The notes beneath the pieces were generated by a model. That model saw nothing but the letters and a program-made list of their open reading frames with translations, searched no databases and had not been told where the DNA came from. The position numbers and the translations under genes were made by a program. Shown here piece by piece: positions 6,640 through 13,368 of a DNA stretch of 52,786 nucleotides (positions are counted from its first letter, which is position 1; every line of letters starts with the position of its first letter). Origin of the DNA: Bacteroidota bacterium (GTDB taxonomy: Bacteria > Bacteroidota > Bacteroidia > Chitinophagales > Saprospiraceae); NCBI GenBank assembly GCA_963169325.1, contig CAUJEY010000204.1:1-52786 (forward strand), written 5' to 3'.

Positions 6640-7716
6640 CTAATCCCTAAACCTTACCCCGGCCCCGGCATGCAAAACCGTATGCTGATGCGAAATACTC
6701 TCCTGATGCACCGCTGTGAGGTATTTTTCCACAAACTCCTCGCTCAGGCCCCGTGCCTGCCCTTGCGCAAACGCTTTTTCCAGAATCTCATTCCAGCGCG
6801 CCGTTTGCAAAATGGAGATGTTGTTGCGGCGTTTGTAGCGCCCGATGTCTTCCGCCAATCGCATCCGGCGTGCCAGCAGGTTGAACAGTTCGAGGTCGAC
6901 CTCGTCTATTTTGTGCCGCAGGTTTTCCAGATTTTCTAAAAAATCGGCGTTGTCTGTGGTTTCCCGGCGCACGATGAGGCGGCCGGCCAATTCACCGTAA
7001 GTAAAAGGCGTGATCTGTTGTTTGGCATCGCTCCAGGCCTGATCGGGCGTGCAGTGTACTTCGGTCATCAAGCCGTCGTAGTTCAGGTCGAGTGCCTGTT
7101 GGGCTACTTCGAGCAGGTCGTCGCGGTTGCCGCAAATATGGCTGTTGTCGCATATCAGCGGCAATTCCGGCATCCGGCGGCGCAGTTCAATGGGTATTTC
7201 CCAATACGGCGCGTTGCGAAACTTGCTTTTCGCGTAGGCCGAAAATCCGCGGTGTATGGCCCCTACCTGTGTGACGCCGGCATTCCGGATCCGCTCGATG
7301 GCACCGATCCACAAATCCAGATCGGGATTCACCGGATTTTTTACCAACACCGGCACATCCACTCCGCGCAGGGCATCGGCAATTTCCTGTACCGAAAACG
7401 GATTGACCGTGGTGCGGGCGCCCACCCAAAGCACATCCACCCCGAATTTGAGGGCCTCGTACACCTGGTTGGCGTTGGCTACCTCAATGGTGGTGCGCAA
7501 GCCGGTTTCGGCCTTCACCCGGCGCAACCAGGGCAGTGCCGAGGCGCCGTTTCCTTCGAAAGCGCCCGGGCGGGTGCGTGGTTTCCATACGCCGGCGCGA
7601 AAAAGGTCGATGCCCAGCGGGACCAATTCATGCGCGACGGCCAGTACTTGTTCCTCCGTTTCCGCCGAACAGGGGCCGGCGATGAGGAATGGGCGGGAAG
7701 CGTGTTTTTGAAACAT
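6640..7716 (-). CDS. Bifunctional 3-deoxy-7-phosphoheptulonate synthase / chorismate mutase type II
   Basis: 358 residues. The N-terminal part is a type I-beta DAHP synthase that condenses phosphoenolpyruvate with erythrose 4-phosphate. Visible motifs are GPCSAE (14-19), KPRTRPG (45-51), GART (99-102), KNP (126-128), HRGFS (155-159) and DNSH (190-193), all on the PEP/metal-binding side of the barrel. Residues ~262-345 form an AroQ-type all-helical chorismate mutase (LRHKIDEVD, LLARRM, IGRYKRR). The enzyme thus supplies both the first step of the shikimate pathway and the chorismate-to-prephenate step. It is the last gene of the pheA-aminotransferase-tyrA operon. The 98-bp gap to tyrA holds a palindromic repeat. 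The C-terminal mutase arrangement is the common one in Bacteroidota. Confidence 0.95.
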   Translation of the reverse strand: MFQKHASRPFLIAGPCSAETEEQVLAVAHELVPLGIDLFRAGVWKPRTRPGAFEGNGASALPWLRRVKAETGLRTTIEVANANQVYEALKFGVDVLWVGARTTVNPFSVQEIADALRGVDVPVLVKNPVNPDLDLWIGAIERIRNAGVTQVGAIHRGFSAYAKSKFRNAPYWEIPIELRRRMPELPLICDNSHICGNRDDLLEVAQQALDLNYDGLMTEVHCTPDQAWSDAKQQITPFTYGELAGRLIVRRETTDNADFLENLENLRHKIDEVDLELFNLLARRMRLAEDIGRYKRRNNISILQTARWNEILEKAFAQGQARGLSEEFVEKYLTAVHQESISHQHTVLHAGAGVRFRD

Positions 7717-7814: not shown

Positions 7815-8657
7815 TTAATCTATTATTCTCCGAATATCATTGGCATGGCGGATAAGTTGATCGAAGGTGTCGAAGTCGCGTTTGATTAGCAGGGTACGGA
7901 AGCGGCTAACGGTATTGATAAACTCGTCGAGTACATCGAGTACATGGTCGCGGTTTTGCTGAAAAATGGGAATCCAGGTATCCGGGTTGCTTTTCGCCAG
8001 GCGCACCGTGCTGCTGAATCCGCCGCTGGCCAGATCGAAAATGCGGTTTTCTTCCCGCTCCTTTTCCAGCACCGTCAGGGCCAGGGCAAAAGATGCGATA
8101 TGCGATATGTGGCTGACGTAGGCCACATGTAAATCGTGCTCCGCGGCATTCAGGTGGATAATGCGCATTCCGAGCGATTCAAAAAGCCTTTTGGCCGTTT
8201 CCCCGGCATCGGGGTCGCTGTCTTCGGCGTCGCAGAAAACGCAACACTTGTTTTTAAACAAATCCGGCACGGCGGCTTCCGGCCCCGAATATTCCGTGCC
8301 CGCCATGGGGTGGGTGGCCACAAAACGCCCGCGTTTAGGGTGGTTTTTTATAGCCGTTATCACGGGGCCTTTGGTGGAACCCACATCTACAACGATTTGG
8401 TTATCTTCAATTTGTGACAATATTTTCGGTATGAGCATGGCCAGGCTGTTTACCGGGGTCGCCACGATAATCAGGTCGGATTGCAGGATGGCAATTTCCA
8501 TGGGTAGTATTCCATCTACTAAGCCCAGGGCCAGCGCCTGAGCTATGTGGGCAGGGTTTTGATCCGTGCCGCTTAATTGACCGGCAAAACCGTTTTTTCT
8601 GAGATCGATGGCTATTGAGCCGCCGATGAGTCCAAGTCCTATAATTGCGATCTTCAT
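7815..8657 (-). CDS. tyrA: Prephenate dehydrogenase
   Basis: 280 residues. It oxidatively decarboxylates prephenate to 4-hydroxyphenylpyruvate, the tyrosine branch. The N-terminal Rossmann fold shows GLGLIGGS (7-14). VDVGSTKG and ATHPMAGTEYSGP are characteristic of the TyrA family, as is the later NAAEHDLHVAYVSHISH with the conserved His residues. The C-terminal dimerisation helices follow (ASGGFSSTVRLAKSNP). There is no fused mutase or ACT domain, so feedback control must lie elsewhere, and the leader attenuator upstream of pheA is a good candidate. Third gene of the operon. Confidence 0.95.
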   Translation of the reverse strand: MKIAIIGLGLIGGSIAIDLRKNGFAGQLSGTDQNPAHIAQALALGLVDGILPMEIAILQSDLIIVATPVNSLAMLIPKILSQIEDNQIVVDVGSTKGPVITAIKNHPKRGRFVATHPMAGTEYSGPEAAVPDLFKNKCCVFCDAEDSDPDAGETAKRLFESLGMRIIHLNAAEHDLHVAYVSHISHIASFALALTVLEKEREENRIFDLASGGFSSTVRLAKSNPDTWIPIFQQNRDHVLDVLDEFINTVSRFRTLLIKRDFDTFDQLIRHANDIRRIID

Positions 8658-8673: not shown

Positions 8674-8753
8674 GGGGCTAATTTTTAATTCGCCTTATGT
8701 GTAGGGCGAATTTTTAACCCGCCCGTAGCGTAGTCGAATTAAAAATTCGCCCC
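8674..8753. repeat. Inverted repeat GGGGC(G/T)AATTTTTAATTC, invading the 3' end of the aminotransferase gene
   Basis: Left arm 8674-8691, right arm 8736-8753, one mismatch. A third partial copy, GGGCGAATTTTTAA, lies at 8704-8717 between them. The right arm and part of the middle are coding: they specify the last ~13 residues of the aminotransferase. Confidence 0.8.
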
Positions 8754-9886
8754 ACCGCAGTTAAAAGATAGTCCGTTGTGCTGCAAAGGGAAATCCGCAC
8801 GTAGCGGTTGCCGGCTGCGCCAAATATTCCGCCGGGCGTGAGAAAAACATAAACCTCGTGCAGCAGCCGGTCGCTCAGTTCGTAGCCGTCGGCGTAACCT
8901 TCCGGGATTTTCGCCCAAACGAACATGCCTTGTTGTGCGCGATCGAAGCTGCAACCCAGTGCCTCCAAAATTACAAATGCATGTTTCTGTCGCTCGCGAT
9001 AGGTATCATTCAATTCGTGATACCAGGTGTCCGGCAGTTCCAGCGCCCGGGTAGCGGCTAATTGCACCGGTTGGAATTGCCCGGAGTCCATATTACTTTT
9101 AAAGCGCAGGATAGCCTGTAAGTGCTCGGCATGACCGGCCACCATGCCCACGCGCCAGCCGGCTAAGTTATGCGATTTGCTGAGCGAGTTCAGTTCCAGC
9201 GCCGTTTCGGCAGCACCGGCAGCCGCCAGTATGCTGATGGGCTGATCGTTGAGGATAAAACTGTATGGGTTATCATTGACAATCAGAATATTGTGCCGAA
9301 GGCCAAAGTCTACTAAGCGTTGAAAAACGGCCGCTGTGGCTACTGCGCCGGTGGGCATGTGCGGGTAATTGACCCACATGATTTTCACCCGGTTCAAGTC
9401 CGTTTTTTCCAAATGGTCCAAATCTGGCAACCACCCGTTGGCAGCGTCGAGGTCGTAGTGCCGTACTTCGGCGCTGGCCAGCAAGGTAGCGGCACGGTAA
9501 GCCGGATAACCCGGATTGGGGACCAAAGCCACGTCGCCGGGTTCCAGAAAAGTCATGGCCACGTGTACGATACCTTCCTTGGAGCCGATCAGCGGCAAAA
9601 TCTCCGTTAGGGGGTCGAGGGTCACGCCATACCAGCGGAGGTACCAATTGGCCCAGGCATTGCGCAGGGCCGGAATGCCGGTATAGGGCTGGTAAGCGTG
9701 CGAGGCGGGGTCATTGGAGGCCGTTTGCAGGGCTTCAATCACCGAAGGCGCCGGTGGCAAATCGGGGCTGCCGATACCGAGATTCAGCACCGGGTGGCCG
9801 GCCTGGCGCATTTGCGCGATGTCGCGCAGTTTGCCGGCGAAGTAGTATTCAGCGATGCCGTCGAGACGGCGGGCGGGTCGGAACAT
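8714..9886 (-). CDS. Class I/II pyridoxal-phosphate aminotransferase (aromatic amino acid operon)
   Basis: 390 residues, fold type I. The PLP-binding lysine is K237 in LNSLSKSHNLAGWRVG, and R245 just after it should bind the substrate carboxylate. D205 and Y208 in NDNPYSF are the cofactor-ring residues; YQPYTGIPALRNA and NPGYPAY are family landmarks. Its place between pheA and tyrA implies transamination of phenylpyruvate and 4-hydroxyphenylpyruvate to Phe and Tyr, although the sequence alone resembles broad aspartate/LL-diaminopimelate-type enzymes. The extreme C-terminus GRIFNSTTLRAG is encoded by an interspersed inverted repeat (8674-8753), so the ancestral stop was probably upstream. Confidence 0.88.
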   Translation of the reverse strand: MFRPARRLDGIAEYYFAGKLRDIAQMRQAGHPVLNLGIGSPDLPPAPSVIEALQTASNDPASHAYQPYTGIPALRNAWANWYLRWYGVTLDPLTEILPLIGSKEGIVHVAMTFLEPGDVALVPNPGYPAYRAATLLASAEVRHYDLDAANGWLPDLDHLEKTDLNRVKIMWVNYPHMPTGAVATAAVFQRLVDFGLRHNILIVNDNPYSFILNDQPISILAAAGAAETALELNSLSKSHNLAGWRVGMVAGHAEHLQAILRFKSNMDSGQFQPVQLAATRALELPDTWYHELNDTYRERQKHAFVILEALGCSFDRAQQGMFVWAKIPEGYADGYELSDRLLHEVYVFLTPGGIFGAAGNRYVRISLCSTTDYLLTAVGRIFNSTTLRAG

Positions 9887-9889
9887 AGG

Positions 9890-9996
9890 GGACGGTGGAC
9901 GGTGGACGGTGGACGGTGGACGGTTGACGGTGGACGGTGGACGGTGGACGGGAGACGGTGGACGGTGGACGGGAGACGGGAGACAGTGAACGGGAG
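9890..9996. repeat. Tandem heptamer repeat GGACGGT
   Basis: About fifteen head-to-tail 7-bp units, mostly GGACGGT, with variants GGTTGAC and GGGAGAC toward the pheA side. It fills the gap between the stop codon of pheA and the ATG of the aminotransferase. The repeated peptides readable in other frames are artefacts of the repeat. Confidence 0.9.
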
Positions 9997-10003
9997 ATTT
10001 GGG

Positions 10004-10867
10004 TTAGAAGGTTGCGGAGCGGTAGATGCCAAACACTTTGCAGTCGTCGGTCATTACATCGAGCAGGCGCAGGGTTTCGGGGATCACGGCGGGGTTTCGC
10101 ACGGTGAAATCGACCAGAAACAGGTATTCGCCGGGAAAACCGACCAGCGGTACCGACTGGATTTTGGTCAGGTTGGCGCTTTGGGCGGCCAACATCGCCA
10201 GAATACGGCTCAGGCTGCCGGGCTGGTGCGGTACGGTAAAACTGACGGATACCTTGTTGGCGCCCTGCACCACTGGCGCCCCGGCTTCCCGTTGCAGGGC
10301 CAGAAAGCGGGTGAAATTGGCCGGATGTGTTTCGATGCCCGGGGCAAGAATGTCCAGACCGTACAGCGCTCCGGCCAGGGCGCTTCCGATAGCGCCGGTA
10401 TTTTTCAATTGCAAGTGGGCAATCCGGGCGGCACTTTCGGCGGTGTCTTCCGATTCGACCAGCCGGATATGCGGGTGCGGCCGGAAAAATTCGGCGCATT
10501 GGGCCAACGCCATAGGATGGGAGTGAACGGCGGTCAGGTCGGCTAATTGCACGCCCGGCAGTACCAATAAATTTTGCCGGATGGGGATATTGACCTCCGC
10601 CGTGATCCGGAACGCATTTTTTTGCAACAAAATATAGTTGCTCAAAATGCTGCCCACCAGGCTATTTTCGATAGCCATCACGGCGGCATCCGCAACCTCG
10701 GCATCGGCGGTTTTTTGTGCCAACTCATCAAAACTCAGCGCCGGAACAAGTTCGATGGCTTCCCCGAAAAGTTGGCGGGCAGCCATTTCGTGAAAAGCTC
10801 CCCGGACGCCCTGAATGACGATGCGCGGAAGCGTTTTGGATATGGATTTTGGAAATAAGTTGCTCAT
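10004..10867 (-). CDS. pheA: Prephenate dehydratase
   Basis: 287 residues from the ATG at 10867. An upstream in-frame ATG at 10909 would add 14 residues that are absent from the family and would overlap the terminator side of the leader. The enzyme converts prephenate to phenylpyruvate. It begins with the periplasmic-binding-like catalytic fold: IQGVRGAFHEMAARQLFG, then VADAAVMAIENSLVGSI, then the GAIGSALAGALYGL region. It ends with an ACT domain (SFTVPHQPGSLSRILAMLA ... PGEYLFLVDF) that binds Phe for feedback inhibition. It is the first structural gene of the Phe/Tyr operon, about 200 nt downstream of the operon promoter and immediately after the attenuator. Confidence 0.95.
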   Translation of the reverse strand: MSNLFPKSISKTLPRIVIQGVRGAFHEMAARQLFGEAIELVPALSFDELAQKTADAEVADAAVMAIENSLVGSILSNYILLQKNAFRITAEVNIPIRQNLLVLPGVQLADLTAVHSHPMALAQCAEFFRPHPHIRLVESEDTAESAARIAHLQLKNTGAIGSALAGALYGLDILAPGIETHPANFTRFLALQREAGAPVVQGANKVSVSFTVPHQPGSLSRILAMLAAQSANLTKIQSVPLVGFPGEYLFLVDFTVRNPAVIPETLRLLDVMTDDCKVFGIYRSATF

Positions 10868-10911
10868 TTTCAATATATTTATAAAATAGATGTGAAATCT
10901 GATGGGCAAAG

Positions 10912-10949
10912 AAAAAGGGGAGTTCCTGTGGCCAGGAACTCCCCTTTTT
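10912..10949 (-). terminator. Attenuator terminator hairpin upstream of pheA
   Basis: A perfect 17-bp stem: AAAAAGGGGAGTTCCTG on plus 10912-10928 against 10933-10949, with the tetraloop TGGC. On the minus strand it ends in a TTTTTCTTT tract. It lies between the leader-peptide stop codon (10976) and the pheA ATG (10867). No other minus-strand gene ends nearby, so termination of the leader transcript is the only sensible role. Confidence 0.88.
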
Positions 10950-10975
10950 GGTGTCGTTTTTTTGTTTTTATCCGA

Positions 10976-11068
10976 TCATACGACTACGCATAGGCAATTC
11001 CCGTTCCTTTTTCCAAAAAAGAAATAGTAACCAAAATAGCCAAAAAAATATGCGCGTATGGTTGTCAT
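10976..11068 (-). CDS. Phe/Tyr-rich leader peptide of the pheA operon
   Basis: A 30-codon ORF, ATG at 11068, TGA at 10976-10978. It begins MTTIRA, then the run YFFGYFGYYFFF (residues 7-18: six Phe, four Tyr, two Gly), then GKRNGNCLCVVV. It sits just downstream of a perfect TACATTTG promoter and upstream of the 17-bp terminator. This is the arrangement of pheL-type attenuators. Ribosomes would stall at the aromatic codons when charged tRNA-Phe or tRNA-Tyr is scarce. The Phe codons UUUCUUUUU can pair with the following AAAAAGGAA (both in 11003-11024). AGGAAC of that second strand can instead pair with GUUCCU in the left arm of the terminator. The peptide itself probably has no other function. 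Confidence 0.88.
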   Translation of the reverse strand: MTTIRAYFFGYFGYYFFFGKRNGNCLCVVV

Positions 11069-11092
11069 GTGTACTGCTGTACTGATACGGTG

Positions 11093-11123
11093 CAAATGTA
11101 TGGGGAAACTTTGAGCGATGCAA
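11093..11123 (-). promoter_or_regulatory. Promoter of the pheA leader/operon
   Basis: On the minus strand TTG (11123-11121), a 20-nt spacer and a perfect TACATTTG (11100-11093). The leader-peptide ATG is 24 nt downstream of the -7 box. Confidence 0.75.
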
Positions 11124-11149: not shown

Positions 11150-11157
11150 TACATTTG
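11150..11157 (+). promoter_or_regulatory. -7 box of the fucosidase gene
   Basis: A perfect TACATTTG, divergent from the pheA promoter. No clear -33 element at the expected distance. The fucosidase ATG lies 45 nt downstream. Confidence 0.5.
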
Positions 11158-11202
11158 CCTGTACCGAAGTGAAAATCTTATCACACACTAACCCGCAACG
11201 CC

Positions 11203-13368
11203 ATGCGCAGAATTTTCCTCCCCTTTTTGTTCGCCTTGCTGCTGTCTCCTCTGTTTGCTCAACAACAGCCTTACCAACCCGACTGGACTTCGCTCGACAC
11301 CCGGCCTACACCCGACTGGTGGCTCGACGCCAAGTTTGGCATTTTTATCCATTGGGGTGTATACTCGGTACCGGCCTATACGGCCAAAGGCAACTACGCC
11401 GAATGGTACCAGCACTCTTTTGAAACCAACGCGCATGAGGGCAAAGTGCGCGAGTTTCACGCCAAAAATTACGGCAACCGCAGCTATTACGACCTGGCCG
11501 ACGATTTCCACGCCGAATTGTTCGAACCCGATGAATGGGCCAAACTTTTTGAAAAATCCGGCGCCAAATACGTGGTGCTCACCTCCAAACACCACGACGG
11601 CTTCTGCCTGTGGCCCAGCGCGCAAGCCGACCGAACCTGGCGTTTCCCCTGGAATTCAGTCGCGCGCGGCCCGAAACGCGACCTGGTGGGCGATTTGTTC
11701 ACCGCTTTGCAAAAAACCAATGTAAAGCCGGGGCTGTATTATTCGCTTTACGAATGGTATAATCCGCTGTATAAAATGGACCATGCGCGCTATGCCTACG
11801 AACATGCGCTGCCGCAACTGCACGATCTCGTGGCCCGCTACCAACCCTGGGTACTCTGGTCCGACGGCGATTGGGACGATACGCCCGATACCTGGCAATC
11901 GCCCCGGTTCCTGTCGTGGCTGTACAACCAAAGCCCGGTGCGCGACTTCGTGGCCGTCAACGACCGCTGGGGTAGCGGCGTCCGGTTCAACCACGGTGGG
12001 TTTTATACGCCCGAATACCAGCCCGACCTGGATTTTGAAGATCATGCCTGGGAGGAAAGCCGCGGCATGGGCTTTTCTTACGGGTACAACCGCGCCGAAG
12101 ATGCGCAGGATTATAATTCCGCCCAAACCCTGGTGCTGCACCTGATCGATAAGGTGTCGCGCGGGGGGAATTTCCTGCTCGACATCGGCCCCGACGCCCA
12201 CGGAAAAATACCGCCCATCATGCAGGAACGGCTGCTCGAAATGGGCCGCTGGCTCGACATCAATGGAGAAGCCATATATGGCACCCGGCGCTGGCGTATA
12301 CCTTTCCAGTGGAGCGAAGGCAACCGCGATTTCAAAGCCGATAAGGTGGAGGGCTGGAAAACCGGCGGCGACCTGCTGCTGAAACAAACCATTGACCCCG
12401 AACCCGGCTACGCGGTAAAAGAAATATTTTACACCTATAAGCCCAAAGACAACGCGGTGTACGCCATTTTCCCCAAATACCCCGCTAACAATCAACTGGT
12501 GCTCAAAGATATCCAATTGCCAAAAAACGCCCTCGTCTCCTTGGTGCATACCAAAGAAGCGTTGCGCTGGACCAGCACCGGAAACAACACCACGGTGTAT
12601 CTGCCGGCTTACGATCCCAACAAGATCAAATCGCCTTACGCCTTTGCGGTCAAGTTGTCCAACTACGGTGAATATGTGGCCAAGCCAAAAGTCGATATTC
12701 AATATGATCCGCAAACGATGCGATCGATCATCACCATGTCCTGCTCTACGCCGGGCACCACGATTCACTATACAGTGGACGGCAGCGTTCCCACCGACAA
12801 ATCACCCACCTACGTCCAACCGGCTACCCTGAGCGAAGCGCGCACCATTCGCGCCCGGGCATTCAAACCGGGGCTGTTGGCCAGCAAGGTAGATTCGGCC
12901 ACCATACAATTATTCACGATGATGCCCAGCCTTTCCATGTTCCGCCAGCCCGATGCCGGCCTGAACATGCGTTTGCTGAAAGCCGATAAATACGATGCGG
13001 CATCGATGGAATATGGCGTAACGCAAAAAAATGCCGTCGTACCGACGATCGACCTGGACCCCTTATGCCTTCAGGAAGCATGCGGAATGGTCTGGAAAGG
13101 ATATTTTTACGCGCCGCAGACCTACGGCTACCAGTTTTTCCTGGAATCGGACGACGGTAGCCAGTTGTTTCTCGACGGCCAGCGCATTGTTGATAACGAC
13201 GGCGACCACGGCATGCAGGAACGCAGCGGTTATGCCTTTCTGCAACAAGGCTGGCATCAGATGCGCATGCTCTATTTCAACAGCGGCGGCGGTGCCGGCC
13301 TCCGGGTGACCTACGCGCCGGTGGGCGGCGCGCGCATTCCGATTCCGGCCCAGGCGTTAGCGCATTGA
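11203..13368 (+). CDS. Secreted alpha-L-fucosidase (GH29) with chitobiase-type and PA14 domains
   Basis: 721 residues. Signal peptide 1-19 (LPFLFALLLSPLFAQ). The GH29 catalytic barrel covers about 25-400: FGIFIHWGVYSVPAY, KHHDGF (129-134) and WSDGDW with the expected nucleophile D221. The general acid is not fixed at sequence level in this family and I cannot point to it. Residues ~535-590 (STPGTTIHYTVDGSVPT) form a CHB_HEX_C-type/Fn3-associated module. The last ~110 residues form a PA14 domain (GYQFFLESDDGSQLFLDG), usually a glycan-binding unit. It should release L-fucose from fucosylated polysaccharides in the periplasm or outside. No sulfatase or SusCD pair lies nearby, so it is not in an obvious polysaccharide utilisation locus. 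Confidence 0.93.
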   Translation: MRRIFLPFLFALLLSPLFAQQQPYQPDWTSLDTRPTPDWWLDAKFGIFIHWGVYSVPAYTAKGNYAEWYQHSFETNAHEGKVREFHAKNYGNRSYYDLADDFHAELFEPDEWAKLFEKSGAKYVVLTSKHHDGFCLWPSAQADRTWRFPWNSVARGPKRDLVGDLFTALQKTNVKPGLYYSLYEWYNPLYKMDHARYAYEHALPQLHDLVARYQPWVLWSDGDWDDTPDTWQSPRFLSWLYNQSPVRDFVAVNDRWGSGVRFNHGGFYTPEYQPDLDFEDHAWEESRGMGFSYGYNRAEDAQDYNSAQTLVLHLIDKVSRGGNFLLDIGPDAHGKIPPIMQERLLEMGRWLDINGEAIYGTRRWRIPFQWSEGNRDFKADKVEGWKTGGDLLLKQTIDPEPGYAVKEIFYTYKPKDNAVYAIFPKYPANNQLVLKDIQLPKNALVSLVHTKEALRWTSTGNNTTVYLPAYDPNKIKSPYAFAVKLSNYGEYVAKPKVDIQYDPQTMRSIITMSCSTPGTTIHYTVDGSVPTDKSPTYVQPATLSEARTIRARAFKPGLLASKVDSATIQLFTMMPSLSMFRQPDAGLNMRLLKADKYDAASMEYGVTQKNAVVPTIDLDPLCLQEACGMVWKGYFYAPQTYGYQFFLESDDGSQLFLDGQRIVDNDGDHGMQERSGYAFLQQGWHQMRMLYFNSGGGAGLRVTYAPVGGARIPIPAQALAH

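What the first reader, a model, noticed from the sequence alone, without database searches (positions are those of the whole stretch)
10912..11123. Complete Phe/Tyr transcription attenuator upstream of the pheA operon
Seen: a Bacteroidota-type promoter (TTG, 20 nt, TACATTTG), a 30-codon ORF with YFFGYFGYYFFF, and a perfect 17-bp terminator before the pheA start. The Phe codons UUUCUUUUU can pair with AAAAAGGAA (strands 1:2). AGGAAC can pair with GUUCCU of the terminator arm (2:3), competing with the terminator (3:4). Known: this is the logic of pheL/trpL attenuation in Gammaproteobacteria. The mixed Phe+Tyr codons match the operon content (pheA, aminotransferase, tyrA, DAHP synthase/mutase), so one leader would sense both end products. 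The leader is 30 codons and too short for routine gene calling.
Basis: partly seen in the sequence, partly recalled or inferred. Interest (0 to 1): 0.85.

Follow-up and report, generated by a model that had tools for sequence, protein, structure and literature searches.

The report
Phe/Tyr-sensing attenuator upstream of pheA
A tiny hidden gene rich in phenylalanine and tyrosine codons, placed before a stop signal for transcription, appears to let the ribosome sense both amino acids and switch on the genes that make them; many related bacteria share the design, and this genus seems to have added a tryptophan-sensing repressor.

Summary
On the minus strand a promoter, a 30-codon Phe/Tyr leader ORF and a 17-bp hairpin with a U-tract precede pheA–aminotransferase–tyrA–DAHP synthase/mutase. 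All 17 same-genus relatives with pheA have the leader, as do 106 of 108 of the nearest Bacteroidota pheA loci; counting ATG ORFs alone, 104 of 107 against 0 of 375 controls. It is missing in 6 of 8 other loci of the order and 17 of 20 from other families. Leader hairpin and terminator covary; the antiterminator is conserved, with strand 2 CGGGAAUU rather than AGGAAC. In modelling the switch falls 0–4 codons past the aromatic run in 111 of 118 leaders. New: a TrpR-operator-like 18-mer at the predicted start site in this genus recurs before trpE, and the genome has a TrpR-family gene, so the operon may read all three aromatic amino acids. The mechanism is textbook, and a structured RNA before pheA was noted in Flavobacteriaceae (PMC9723704): a new variant of a known kind. 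No experiment was possible.

The parts
11121..11123 (-). -33 TTG of the Bacteroidota-type promoter (promoter type recalled)
   Evidence: sequence; 20 nt before the -7 box; a TTG at a like place is visible in many of the same-genus loci
11093..11100 (-). -7 box TACATTTG
   Evidence: sequence; over 114 leaders with 130 nt of upstream sequence, 62 of 73 perfect TAnnTTTG boxes lie 0-29 nt before the leader start
11071..11088 (-). TrpR-operator-like 18-mer GTATCAGTACAGCAGTAC, overlapping the predicted transcription start
   Evidence: present in all 15 non-redundant same-genus leaders (leave-one-out scores 16.9-28.4), none of 105 other leaders scores above 6.6; also upstream of 21 of 22 trpE loci as scanned
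10976..11068 (-). leader ORF, 30 codons, MTTIRAYFFGYFGYYFFFGKRNGNCLCVVV
   Evidence: leaders of the same plan in 17 of 17 same-genus relatives with pheA
11015..11050 (-). aromatic run, codons 7-18 (YFFGYFGYYFFF): 6 Phe and 4 Tyr in 12 codons
   Evidence: sequence
11049..11056 (-). 5' side of the leader (pause) hairpin, codons 5-7
   Evidence: pairs with the 3' side below
11039..11041 (-). GGC of the leader hairpin (codon 10)
   Evidence: pairs with GCC at 10993-10995
10985..10995 (-). 3' side of the leader hairpin (GCCUAUGCGUA), codons 25-28
10996..11003 (-). strand 2 of the antiterminator, CGGGAAUU (codons 22-25)
   Evidence: pairs with AGUUCCUG of the terminator 5' arm; 85% of cells paired over 15 sequences, 27-58% when the partner is slid
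10980..10984 (-). 5' side of the inner antiterminator stem (GUCGU, end of the ORF)
   Evidence: pairs with ACGAC at 10953-10957 in the fold; cognate pairing test
10953..10957 (-). 3' side of the inner antiterminator stem (ACGAC, spacer)
10933..10949 (-). terminator 5' arm (strand 3), AAAAAGGGGAGUUCCUG
   Evidence: nearly invariant in the genus (2 non-majority letters in 8 core columns against 13 in the facing 3' arm)
10912..10928 (-). terminator 3' arm (strand 4)
10908..10916 (-). U-rich tail of the terminator, UUUUUCUUU (overlaps the outer A:U pairs)
   Evidence: sequence
10004..10867 (-). pheA, prephenate dehydratase
   Evidence: prephenate dehydratase model, E 1.4e-54, below its curated cut-off; PF00800 over its cut-off
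8714..9886 (-). PLP aminotransferase of the operon
   Evidence: aminotransferase models, none over its cut-off
7815..8657 (-). tyrA, prephenate dehydrogenase
   Evidence: NF006307, 348 bits, cut-off 295
6640..7716 (-). DAHP synthase fused to chorismate mutase (named from its sequence by recall; no family search was run on it)
   Evidence: ORF; found downstream of pheA in the same order in 57 of 80 loci

Best explanation
It is a ribosome-mediated transcription attenuator of the pheA-aminotransferase-tyrA-DAHP synthase/mutase operon that senses charged tRNA-Phe and tRNA-Tyr together. When both are plentiful the ribosome runs past codon 19 and covers strand 2 (CGGGAAUU), and the terminator hairpin forms before pheA. 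When either is scarce the ribosome stalls in codons 7-18; strand 2 is then free to pair with the 5' arm of the terminator, and transcription continues into the operon. With no ribosome on the leader, the leader hairpin competes for strand 2 and termination is favoured, though not strongly. Shown here: the anatomy, its conservation, the mutually exclusive pairings, and in modelling the match between switch point and run. Inferred: transcription of the leader, its translation, and the response to starvation. Added layer, inferred: in this genus a TrpR-family repressor probably binds the 18-mer at the start site when tryptophan is plentiful.
For: Leader in 17 of 17 same-genus relatives with pheA and in 106 of 108 wider loci; ATG ORFs alone 104 of 107 against 0 of 375 controls. 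Terminator: 100% of cells paired in 15 sequences, 10 compensatory cells, no shuffle of 500 as good. Leader hairpin: no permutation of 5000 as good; covariation score above all 500 shuffles and all slid versions. Antiterminator: inner stem 1 of 5000 permutations as good; 114 of 118 distinct leaders form at least 5 pairs between ORF tail and terminator arm, mean energy -16.9 against -8.9 kcal/mol for shuffles. Window switch: probability of the antiterminator 0.97-0.99 for stalls at codons 7-19, at most 0.11 from codon 20 on. Wider set: switch 0-4 codons past the last aromatic codon in 111 of 118. Operon content fits the codons: all three further genes in 56 of 67 loci with enough sequence. In G022, where no prephenate dehydratase was found, a leader with 9 F/Y residues and a hairpin stands before the aminotransferase. 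PMC9723704 (section 19 read whole) reports structured 5' transcripts upstream of pheA and hisG in Flavobacteriaceae.
Against: No transcript, ribosome or reporter data for this organism. The outer antiterminator stem shows no double-sided change and its permutation test says nothing (4270 of 5000 as good), because the terminator arm is nearly invariant. In the wider set the number of tail-arm pairs alone is unusual in only 65 of 118 leaders (at most 3 of 60 shuffles), the energy in 109. In the leader hairpin the number of pairs with double-sided change is no more than in shuffles (240 of 500) and its main helix pairs in only 71.8% of cells. With no ribosome the antiterminator still has probability 0.4 in the window. 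Six of 8 order-level loci and 17 of 20 loci from other families lack the leader. The switch modelling assumes that the ribosome covers 12 nt from the first base of its A-site codon; U-rich aromatic codons can hardly pair with the arm themselves, so part of the agreement is expected. Seven of 118 leaders do not fit the 0-4 codon rule.
Confidence: 0.92

Rival explanations
1. The hairpin is only an ordinary or bidirectional terminator for the divergent genes, and the short ORF is a chance U-rich frame.
For: The scan lists the hairpin as terminator-like on the plus strand, not on the minus strand; the region is AT-rich.
Against: 0 of 375 control regions have such an ORF, 104 of 107 pheA regions do. 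The terminator's 5' arm is far more conserved than its 3' arm (2 against 13 non-majority letters), as expected of a strand with two partners. In the genus the hairpin keeps its place between leader and pheA.
Confidence: 0.02
2. The leader encodes a small functional protein and the hairpin is incidental.
For: The peptide is aromatic and hydrophobic in the middle, 14-40 residues long.
Against: Outside the F/Y run the residues change freely between groups while the C-terminal codons take part in RNA pairing; 114 of 118 leaders have the alternative pairing.
Confidence: 0.03
3. The RNA is a riboswitch, a tRNA-sensing T-box, or the target of an RNA-binding protein, with the ORF secondary.
For: Structured 5' RNA before an amino-acid operon.
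Against: No Rfam family reaches its gathering score in the window and no T-box family is among the 23 matches up to E 10 in the region. The structure is built largely from the coding sequence.
Confidence: 0.02
4. In this genus control is mainly by the TrpR-like repressor at initiation and the attenuator is a relic.
For: The operator-like 18-mer is in all 15 non-redundant genus leaders and a TrpR-family gene in 24 of 38 genus genomes.
Against: Leader, terminator and alternative pairings are intact and covary in the same genomes. TrpR would not report Phe or Tyr.
Confidence: 0.05

Closest known systems
pheL/pheA attenuator of Escherichia coli (Rfam RF01859 Phe_leader)
   Same: Short Phe-rich leader ORF, pause hairpin, antiterminator and terminator before pheA (E. 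coli details recalled).
   Different: The leader here mixes Phe and Tyr; strand 2 lies inside the ORF; the operon also holds tyrA and DAHP synthase; Bacteroidota mRNAs lack Shine-Dalgarno sequences (PMC6847099, abstract start and passages). The Rfam model scores 17.3 bits against a gathering score of 55.
Structured 5' transcripts upstream of pheA and hisG in Flavobacterium psychrophilum and other Flavobacteriaceae (PMC9723704)
   Same: Same phylum and genes; the authors see strong clues for leader-peptide attenuation upstream of amino-acid operons.
   Different: Section 19 (read whole) and the passages found give no leader sequence, pairing model, Phe+Tyr reading, spread outside the family, or TrpR layer. 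The supplements were not read.
his operon attenuator
   Same: All 12 same-genus hisG loci examined have a His-run leader ORF upstream, own genome MINSTFHLHHHHHLPPGER (11, L162).
   Different: Other amino acid. The hairpins before hisG were judged by eye only, and the pairings were not tested.
TrpR regulon of Escherichia coli
   Same: A TrpR-family protein and 18-bp sites before trpE that resemble the E. coli operator as recalled (11-14 of 18 letters).
   Different: Here the second target is a Phe/Tyr-attenuated operon; the protein is below the TrpR equivalog cut-off (40.6 against 67.25 bits).
uORFC-13-1 motif upstream of aroF in Acholeplasma (PMC8632094, passages)
   Same: Suggested Phe-codon uORF next to a terminator before a DAHP synthase gene.
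   Different: Other phylum; described there with Phe only.

Membership tests
Ribosome-mediated transcription attenuator | Short leader ORF with a run of codons for the operon's end products | tested here: met
Ribosome-mediated transcription attenuator | Intrinsic terminator between leader and first gene | tested here: met
   for the genus; 92 of 106 leaders by a strict scan (a few of these hairpins overlap the start of the pheA match); 118 of 118 distinct leaders by a loose scan without its own control
Ribosome-mediated transcription attenuator | Antiterminator that excludes the terminator | tested here: met
   pairing and conservation, without double-sided covariation of the outer stem
Ribosome-mediated transcription attenuator | Leader (pause) hairpin that competes with the antiterminator | tested here: met
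Ribosome-mediated transcription attenuator | Position of the ribosome on the regulatory codons decides the fold | tested here: met
   by modelling only
Ribosome-mediated transcription attenuator | Readthrough rises when the amino acid is limiting | not testable with these tools
   needs RNA-seq or a reporter
Rfam RF01859 Phe_leader | Score above the family's gathering score | tested here: not met
   17.3 bits against 55, E 2.2, full-length match at the right place
T-box | Match to an Rfam T-box model | tested here: not met
   no match
TrpR repressor family (gene elsewhere in this genome) | Pfam PF01371 cut-off | tested here: met
   42.6 bits against 27; the same family also rings in Bacillus subtilis, so it is wider than TrpR
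TrpR repressor family (gene elsewhere in this genome) | TIGR01321 TrpR equivalog cut-off | tested here: not met
   40.6 bits against 67.25
TrpR repressor family (gene elsewhere in this genome) | Tryptophan-dependent binding to the 18-mer | not testable with these tools
   needs a binding assay

The most novel reading that the evidence does not exclude
One promoter-leader unit reads all three aromatic amino acids: Trp through a TrpR-family repressor acting at the transcription start, Phe and Tyr through the codons of one attenuator, over an operon that carries both branch enzymes and the DAHP synthase. The attenuator is widespread in the Bacteroidia and the TrpR layer was added in this genus. 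The attenuator works in bacteria whose mRNAs lack Shine-Dalgarno sequences, so tight transcription-translation coupling must exist at these leaders.
Probability: 0.6. Interest if true: 0.72.

Novelty: new variant of a known kind. Interest (0 to 1): 0.6.

Why it matters
Leader-peptide attenuation is textbook in Gammaproteobacteria, but for Bacteroidota the texts that I could read only hint at it. A widespread, sequence-defined case gives a ready reporter for asking whether transcription and translation are coupled in a phylum whose mRNAs lack Shine-Dalgarno sequences. It also shows how one leader can read two end products and how a repressor layer may be added later. The leader genes are too short for routine gene calling, and in this window no Rfam family reaches its cut-off.

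Tried and rejected
Not supported: Trp sensing by the leader itself. 35 of 118 leaders hold a Trp and Trp is 1.2% of residues, about an ordinary share (recalled), but 28 Trp lie in the Phe-rich windows, so it is not excluded for groups such as Maribacter and Flagellimonas. Rejected: Rfam or T-box membership. Not found: a Trp leader before trpE in this genus; in the 21 loci looked at the best upstream ORFs hold 0-3 Trp. Led nowhere: a genome-wide pattern scan for TAnnTTTG-to-ATG spacing, hardly above its reversed control (742 against 673 matches). The Rfam miRNA, CRISPR and sRNA matches are below their gathering scores.

Dropped rows and weak points. L006, L011 and L012 were left out of the 15-locus tests as near-duplicates. 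L023-L028 (no leader) were left out of the 128 loci examined; of those 128, 126 have a leader, with 118 distinct peptides. L029 and L030 are the contigs of L004 and L012 again. L047 and L092 have no leader by my scan; L092 has only 177 nt of upstream sequence. L015 was wrongly cut in the test (strand 2 placed too far 3'). In one search, six of the 17 loci without a leader (L143, L148-L151, L156) have the pheA match inside a longer frame. In one search the control windows come from the same loci and some overlap real sites, so their 95% point (18.8) is inflated, and several trpE sites score below it; the trpE miss L250 is an error of my frame at a contig edge, and its site is seen in L232. The PWM was built from the same 15 leaders. 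In one search L162 was cut wrongly and was redone.

Full report
1. The observation. On the minus strand the window reads TTG (11123-11121), 20 nt, TACATTTG (11100-11093), a 30-codon ORF from ATG 11068 to the stop ending at 10976 (MTTIRAYFFGYFGYYFFFGKRNGNCLCVVV), then a hairpin of 17 perfect pairs at 10949-10912 with a U-tract, and pheA from ATG 10867. The consensus scan lists the hairpin as terminator-like on the plus strand only, because on the minus strand the first five U of UUUUUCUUU are counted into the stem; with 13 pairs counted the tail is UUUUCUUU. The leader RNA folds better than all 200 shuffles, z -4.9. In the 8.07-Mb genome the region matches only itself. Downstream in the same direction lie pheA, an aminotransferase and tyrA and an ORF that I name DAHP synthase/chorismate mutase from its sequence.

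2. Same genus. A search of 60 genomes, the window's own among them, found pheA in 26: own, 17 of 36 same-genus relatives, and 8 of other families in the order. All 17 same-genus loci have a leader of 29-33 codons at the same place (L004-L020). Of the eight others two have one (L021, L022); L023-L028 do not, L026 having only 117 nt of upstream sequence.

3. Wider. In 80 named loci (the best 80 of more than 558) and 28 more from a phylum search (the best-scoring of 172 genomes with pheA), 106 of 108 have an upstream ORF with at least 6 Phe/Tyr in 12 codons; L047 and L092 do not. Organisms include Chitinophaga, Flagellimonas, Maribacter, Flavobacterium, Marinifilum and Hymenobacter. These are the nearest pheA relatives, and L029 and L030 are same-genus contigs seen before, so the sample leans to kin. 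Of 20 further pheA genes, one or two each from other families (19 of them outside the class), only 3 had a leader (L142, L153, L157); in 6 of the 17 without, the pheA match sits in a longer frame and the test is unfair. Counting ATG ORFs only, 104 of 107 pheA regions reach 6, against 0 of 375 control regions, maximum 5. By a strict scan 92 of the 106 leaders are followed by a terminator-like hairpin; a looser scan, without its own control, finds one for all 118 distinct leaders.

4. What the codons say. Over 118 distinct leaders (from 126 loci with a leader, of 128 examined) Phe is 23.9% and Tyr 14.0% of residues, and 116 hold at least one Tyr. In windows chosen on Phe alone there are 648 Phe and 354 Tyr, but 63 Ser, 11 Leu, 11 Cys, 8 Ile and 6 Val, the other one-step neighbours of Phe codons. 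Tyr codons therefore look selected. The genes downstream fit: of 67 loci with at least 3.8 kb after pheA, 56 have the aminotransferase, tyrA and DAHP synthase/mutase, and all 57 of 80 loci with the three have them in this order; 3 of the 67 have none of them.

5. Structures. Each of the 18 genus sequences (window included) folds in two exclusive ways. (a) A leader hairpin closes the codons before the aromatic run on those near the end of the ORF. Among 15 loci no permutation of 5000 pairs as well as the cognate strands; the covariation score exceeds all 500 shuffles and all slid versions, but the number of pairs with double-sided change does not (240 of 500), and the main helix pairs in 71.8% of cells. 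(b) An antiterminator pairs ORF codons near 22-25 with the terminator's 5' arm, with an inner stem between ORF end and spacer (1 of 5000 permutations as good). Its outer stem has 85% of cells paired, 27-58% when slid, but no double-sided change, and the permutation test is uninformative there (4270 of 5000) because the arm is nearly invariant. That arm has 2 non-majority letters in 8 columns, its 3' partner 13, mostly G-U drift, as expected of a strand with two partners. The terminator pairs in 100% of cells with 10 compensatory ones. In the wider set 114 of 118 leaders form at least 5 pairs between ORF tail and terminator arm (mean 8.3, shuffles 2.9); the energy is reached by at most 3 of 60 shuffles in 109, the pair count in 65.

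6. Switch point. For the window, stalls at codons 7-19 give the antiterminator a probability of 0.97-0.99; at codon 20 it is 0.09 and later at most 0.11; with no ribosome it is 0.4. The run ends at codon 18. In the wider set the switch lies 0-4 codons past the last aromatic codon in 111 of 118 leaders, with mean probability 0.71 in the run and 0.03 five or more codons after it (101 leaders long enough). Strand 2 starts 7-14 nt after the last aromatic codon in 109 of 118. This assumes that the ribosome covers 12 nt from the first base of its A-site codon, and U-rich codons make some agreement likely anyway. [quoted passage not shown]

7. A second layer. Between the -7 box and the leader start all 15 non-redundant genus loci carry an 18-mer near GTAACAGTACAACAGTAC (12-18 letters identical; leave-one-out scores 16.9-28.4); none of 105 leaders outside the genus scores above 6.6. 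The matrix finds it in the 300 nt upstream of 21 of 22 trpE matches (scores 12.6-25.4; own genome GTACCAGTACATTAATAC), and the 22nd has it just outside my frame. Some sites are inverted repeats, such as GTATCA-N6-TGATAC in L254, the spacing of the E. coli TrpR operator as I recall it (11-14 of 18 letters identical). A gene of family PF01371 is present in 24 of 38 genus genomes, this one included; in G014 it lies directly before trpE with the site between them. Among 148 other genomes of the class one exceeds the family cut-off and five more match weakly. All 18 genus genomes with pheA have it, and 5 of the 19 without pheA, which is confounded by general loss of amino-acid pathways. The protein aligns with solved TrpR chains at E 0.003, its best NCBIfam match is TrpR, below the equivalog cut-off, and PF01371 also rings in Bacillus subtilis. 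I infer, and have not shown, Trp-dependent repression on top of the attenuator.

8. Natural experiments. In G022, without a prephenate dehydratase by two searches, a leader and a hairpin with U-run stand directly before the aminotransferase, with the start of tyrA following. In G029, without pheA by one search, promoter, 18-mer and hairpin remain but the ORF is gone.

9. Known or new. PMC9723704 (section 19 read whole; passages elsewhere) reports structured 5' elements before pheA and hisG in F. psychrophilum and relatives and strong clues of leader-peptide attenuation before amino-acid operons: prior notice, and independent support for transcription. PMC7366714 (passages) mentions sORFs reminiscent of leader peptides in B. 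thetaiotaomicron. PMC2965389 (passages, 2010) knew leader-peptide systems from Proteobacteria and Actinobacteria and added one from bacilli. In the listings of six searches on attenuation and leader peptides and I saw no other account of a Phe+Tyr leader in Bacteroidota, and in the 10 of 18 listed papers none on TrpR there. Most subscription papers are not held, and a 2010 survey could not be opened, so priority is uncertain.

10. Verdict. The finding is right, the mechanism is well supported by comparison, and the pairing detail is corrected. The kind is known; the mixed Phe+Tyr reading, the breadth and the genus-specific TrpR-like layer make it a new variant.

Noticed in passing
L159-L166, L168-L171 (same-genus hisG loci); own genome G000:C194 near 6848: All 12 same-genus hisG loci have a His-run leader ORF upstream, for example MINSTFHLHHHHHLPPGER in the own genome, and many show a strong hairpin by eye; L167 from another family has one too, L158 a weaker one. 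Attenuation may be a general habit here.
   Followed up: partly
leaders of the wider set; L161, L164, L168 for his: The -7 box often ends only 0-9 nt before the leader start codon (34 of 73 perfect boxes), so many leader mRNAs may be nearly leaderless. Against a general rule: leaderless mRNAs were only 5.5% in F. psychrophilum (PMC9723704, passage). The window's own leader has 24 nt between box and ATG.
   Followed up: partly
L197 (G022), around 1500-1700: A genome without a detected prephenate dehydratase keeps a Phe/Tyr leader and hairpin directly before the aminotransferase of the operon.
   Followed up: yes
L193 (G029), around 1500: Relic: promoter, 18-mer and hairpin kept, leader ORF lost, no aromatic operon seen next to it; it could make a short RNA.
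   Followed up: no
window about 9886-10004 and L171 just before hisG: Short tandem repeats of the GTCCACC type lie between pheA and the aminotransferase and again between the his leader and hisG of this genome (seen in the translations and the sequence).
   Followed up: no
G007, G009, G017: Genomes of the genus with trpE, hisG and a trpR-family gene but no prephenate dehydratase by protein and by PF00800 search; how they make Phe is open.
   Followed up: no
window 11151-11158, plus strand: A second TACATTTG box faces the divergent gene at 11203, which looks fucosidase-like by recall; the intergenic region seems to hold two back-to-back promoters.
   Followed up: no
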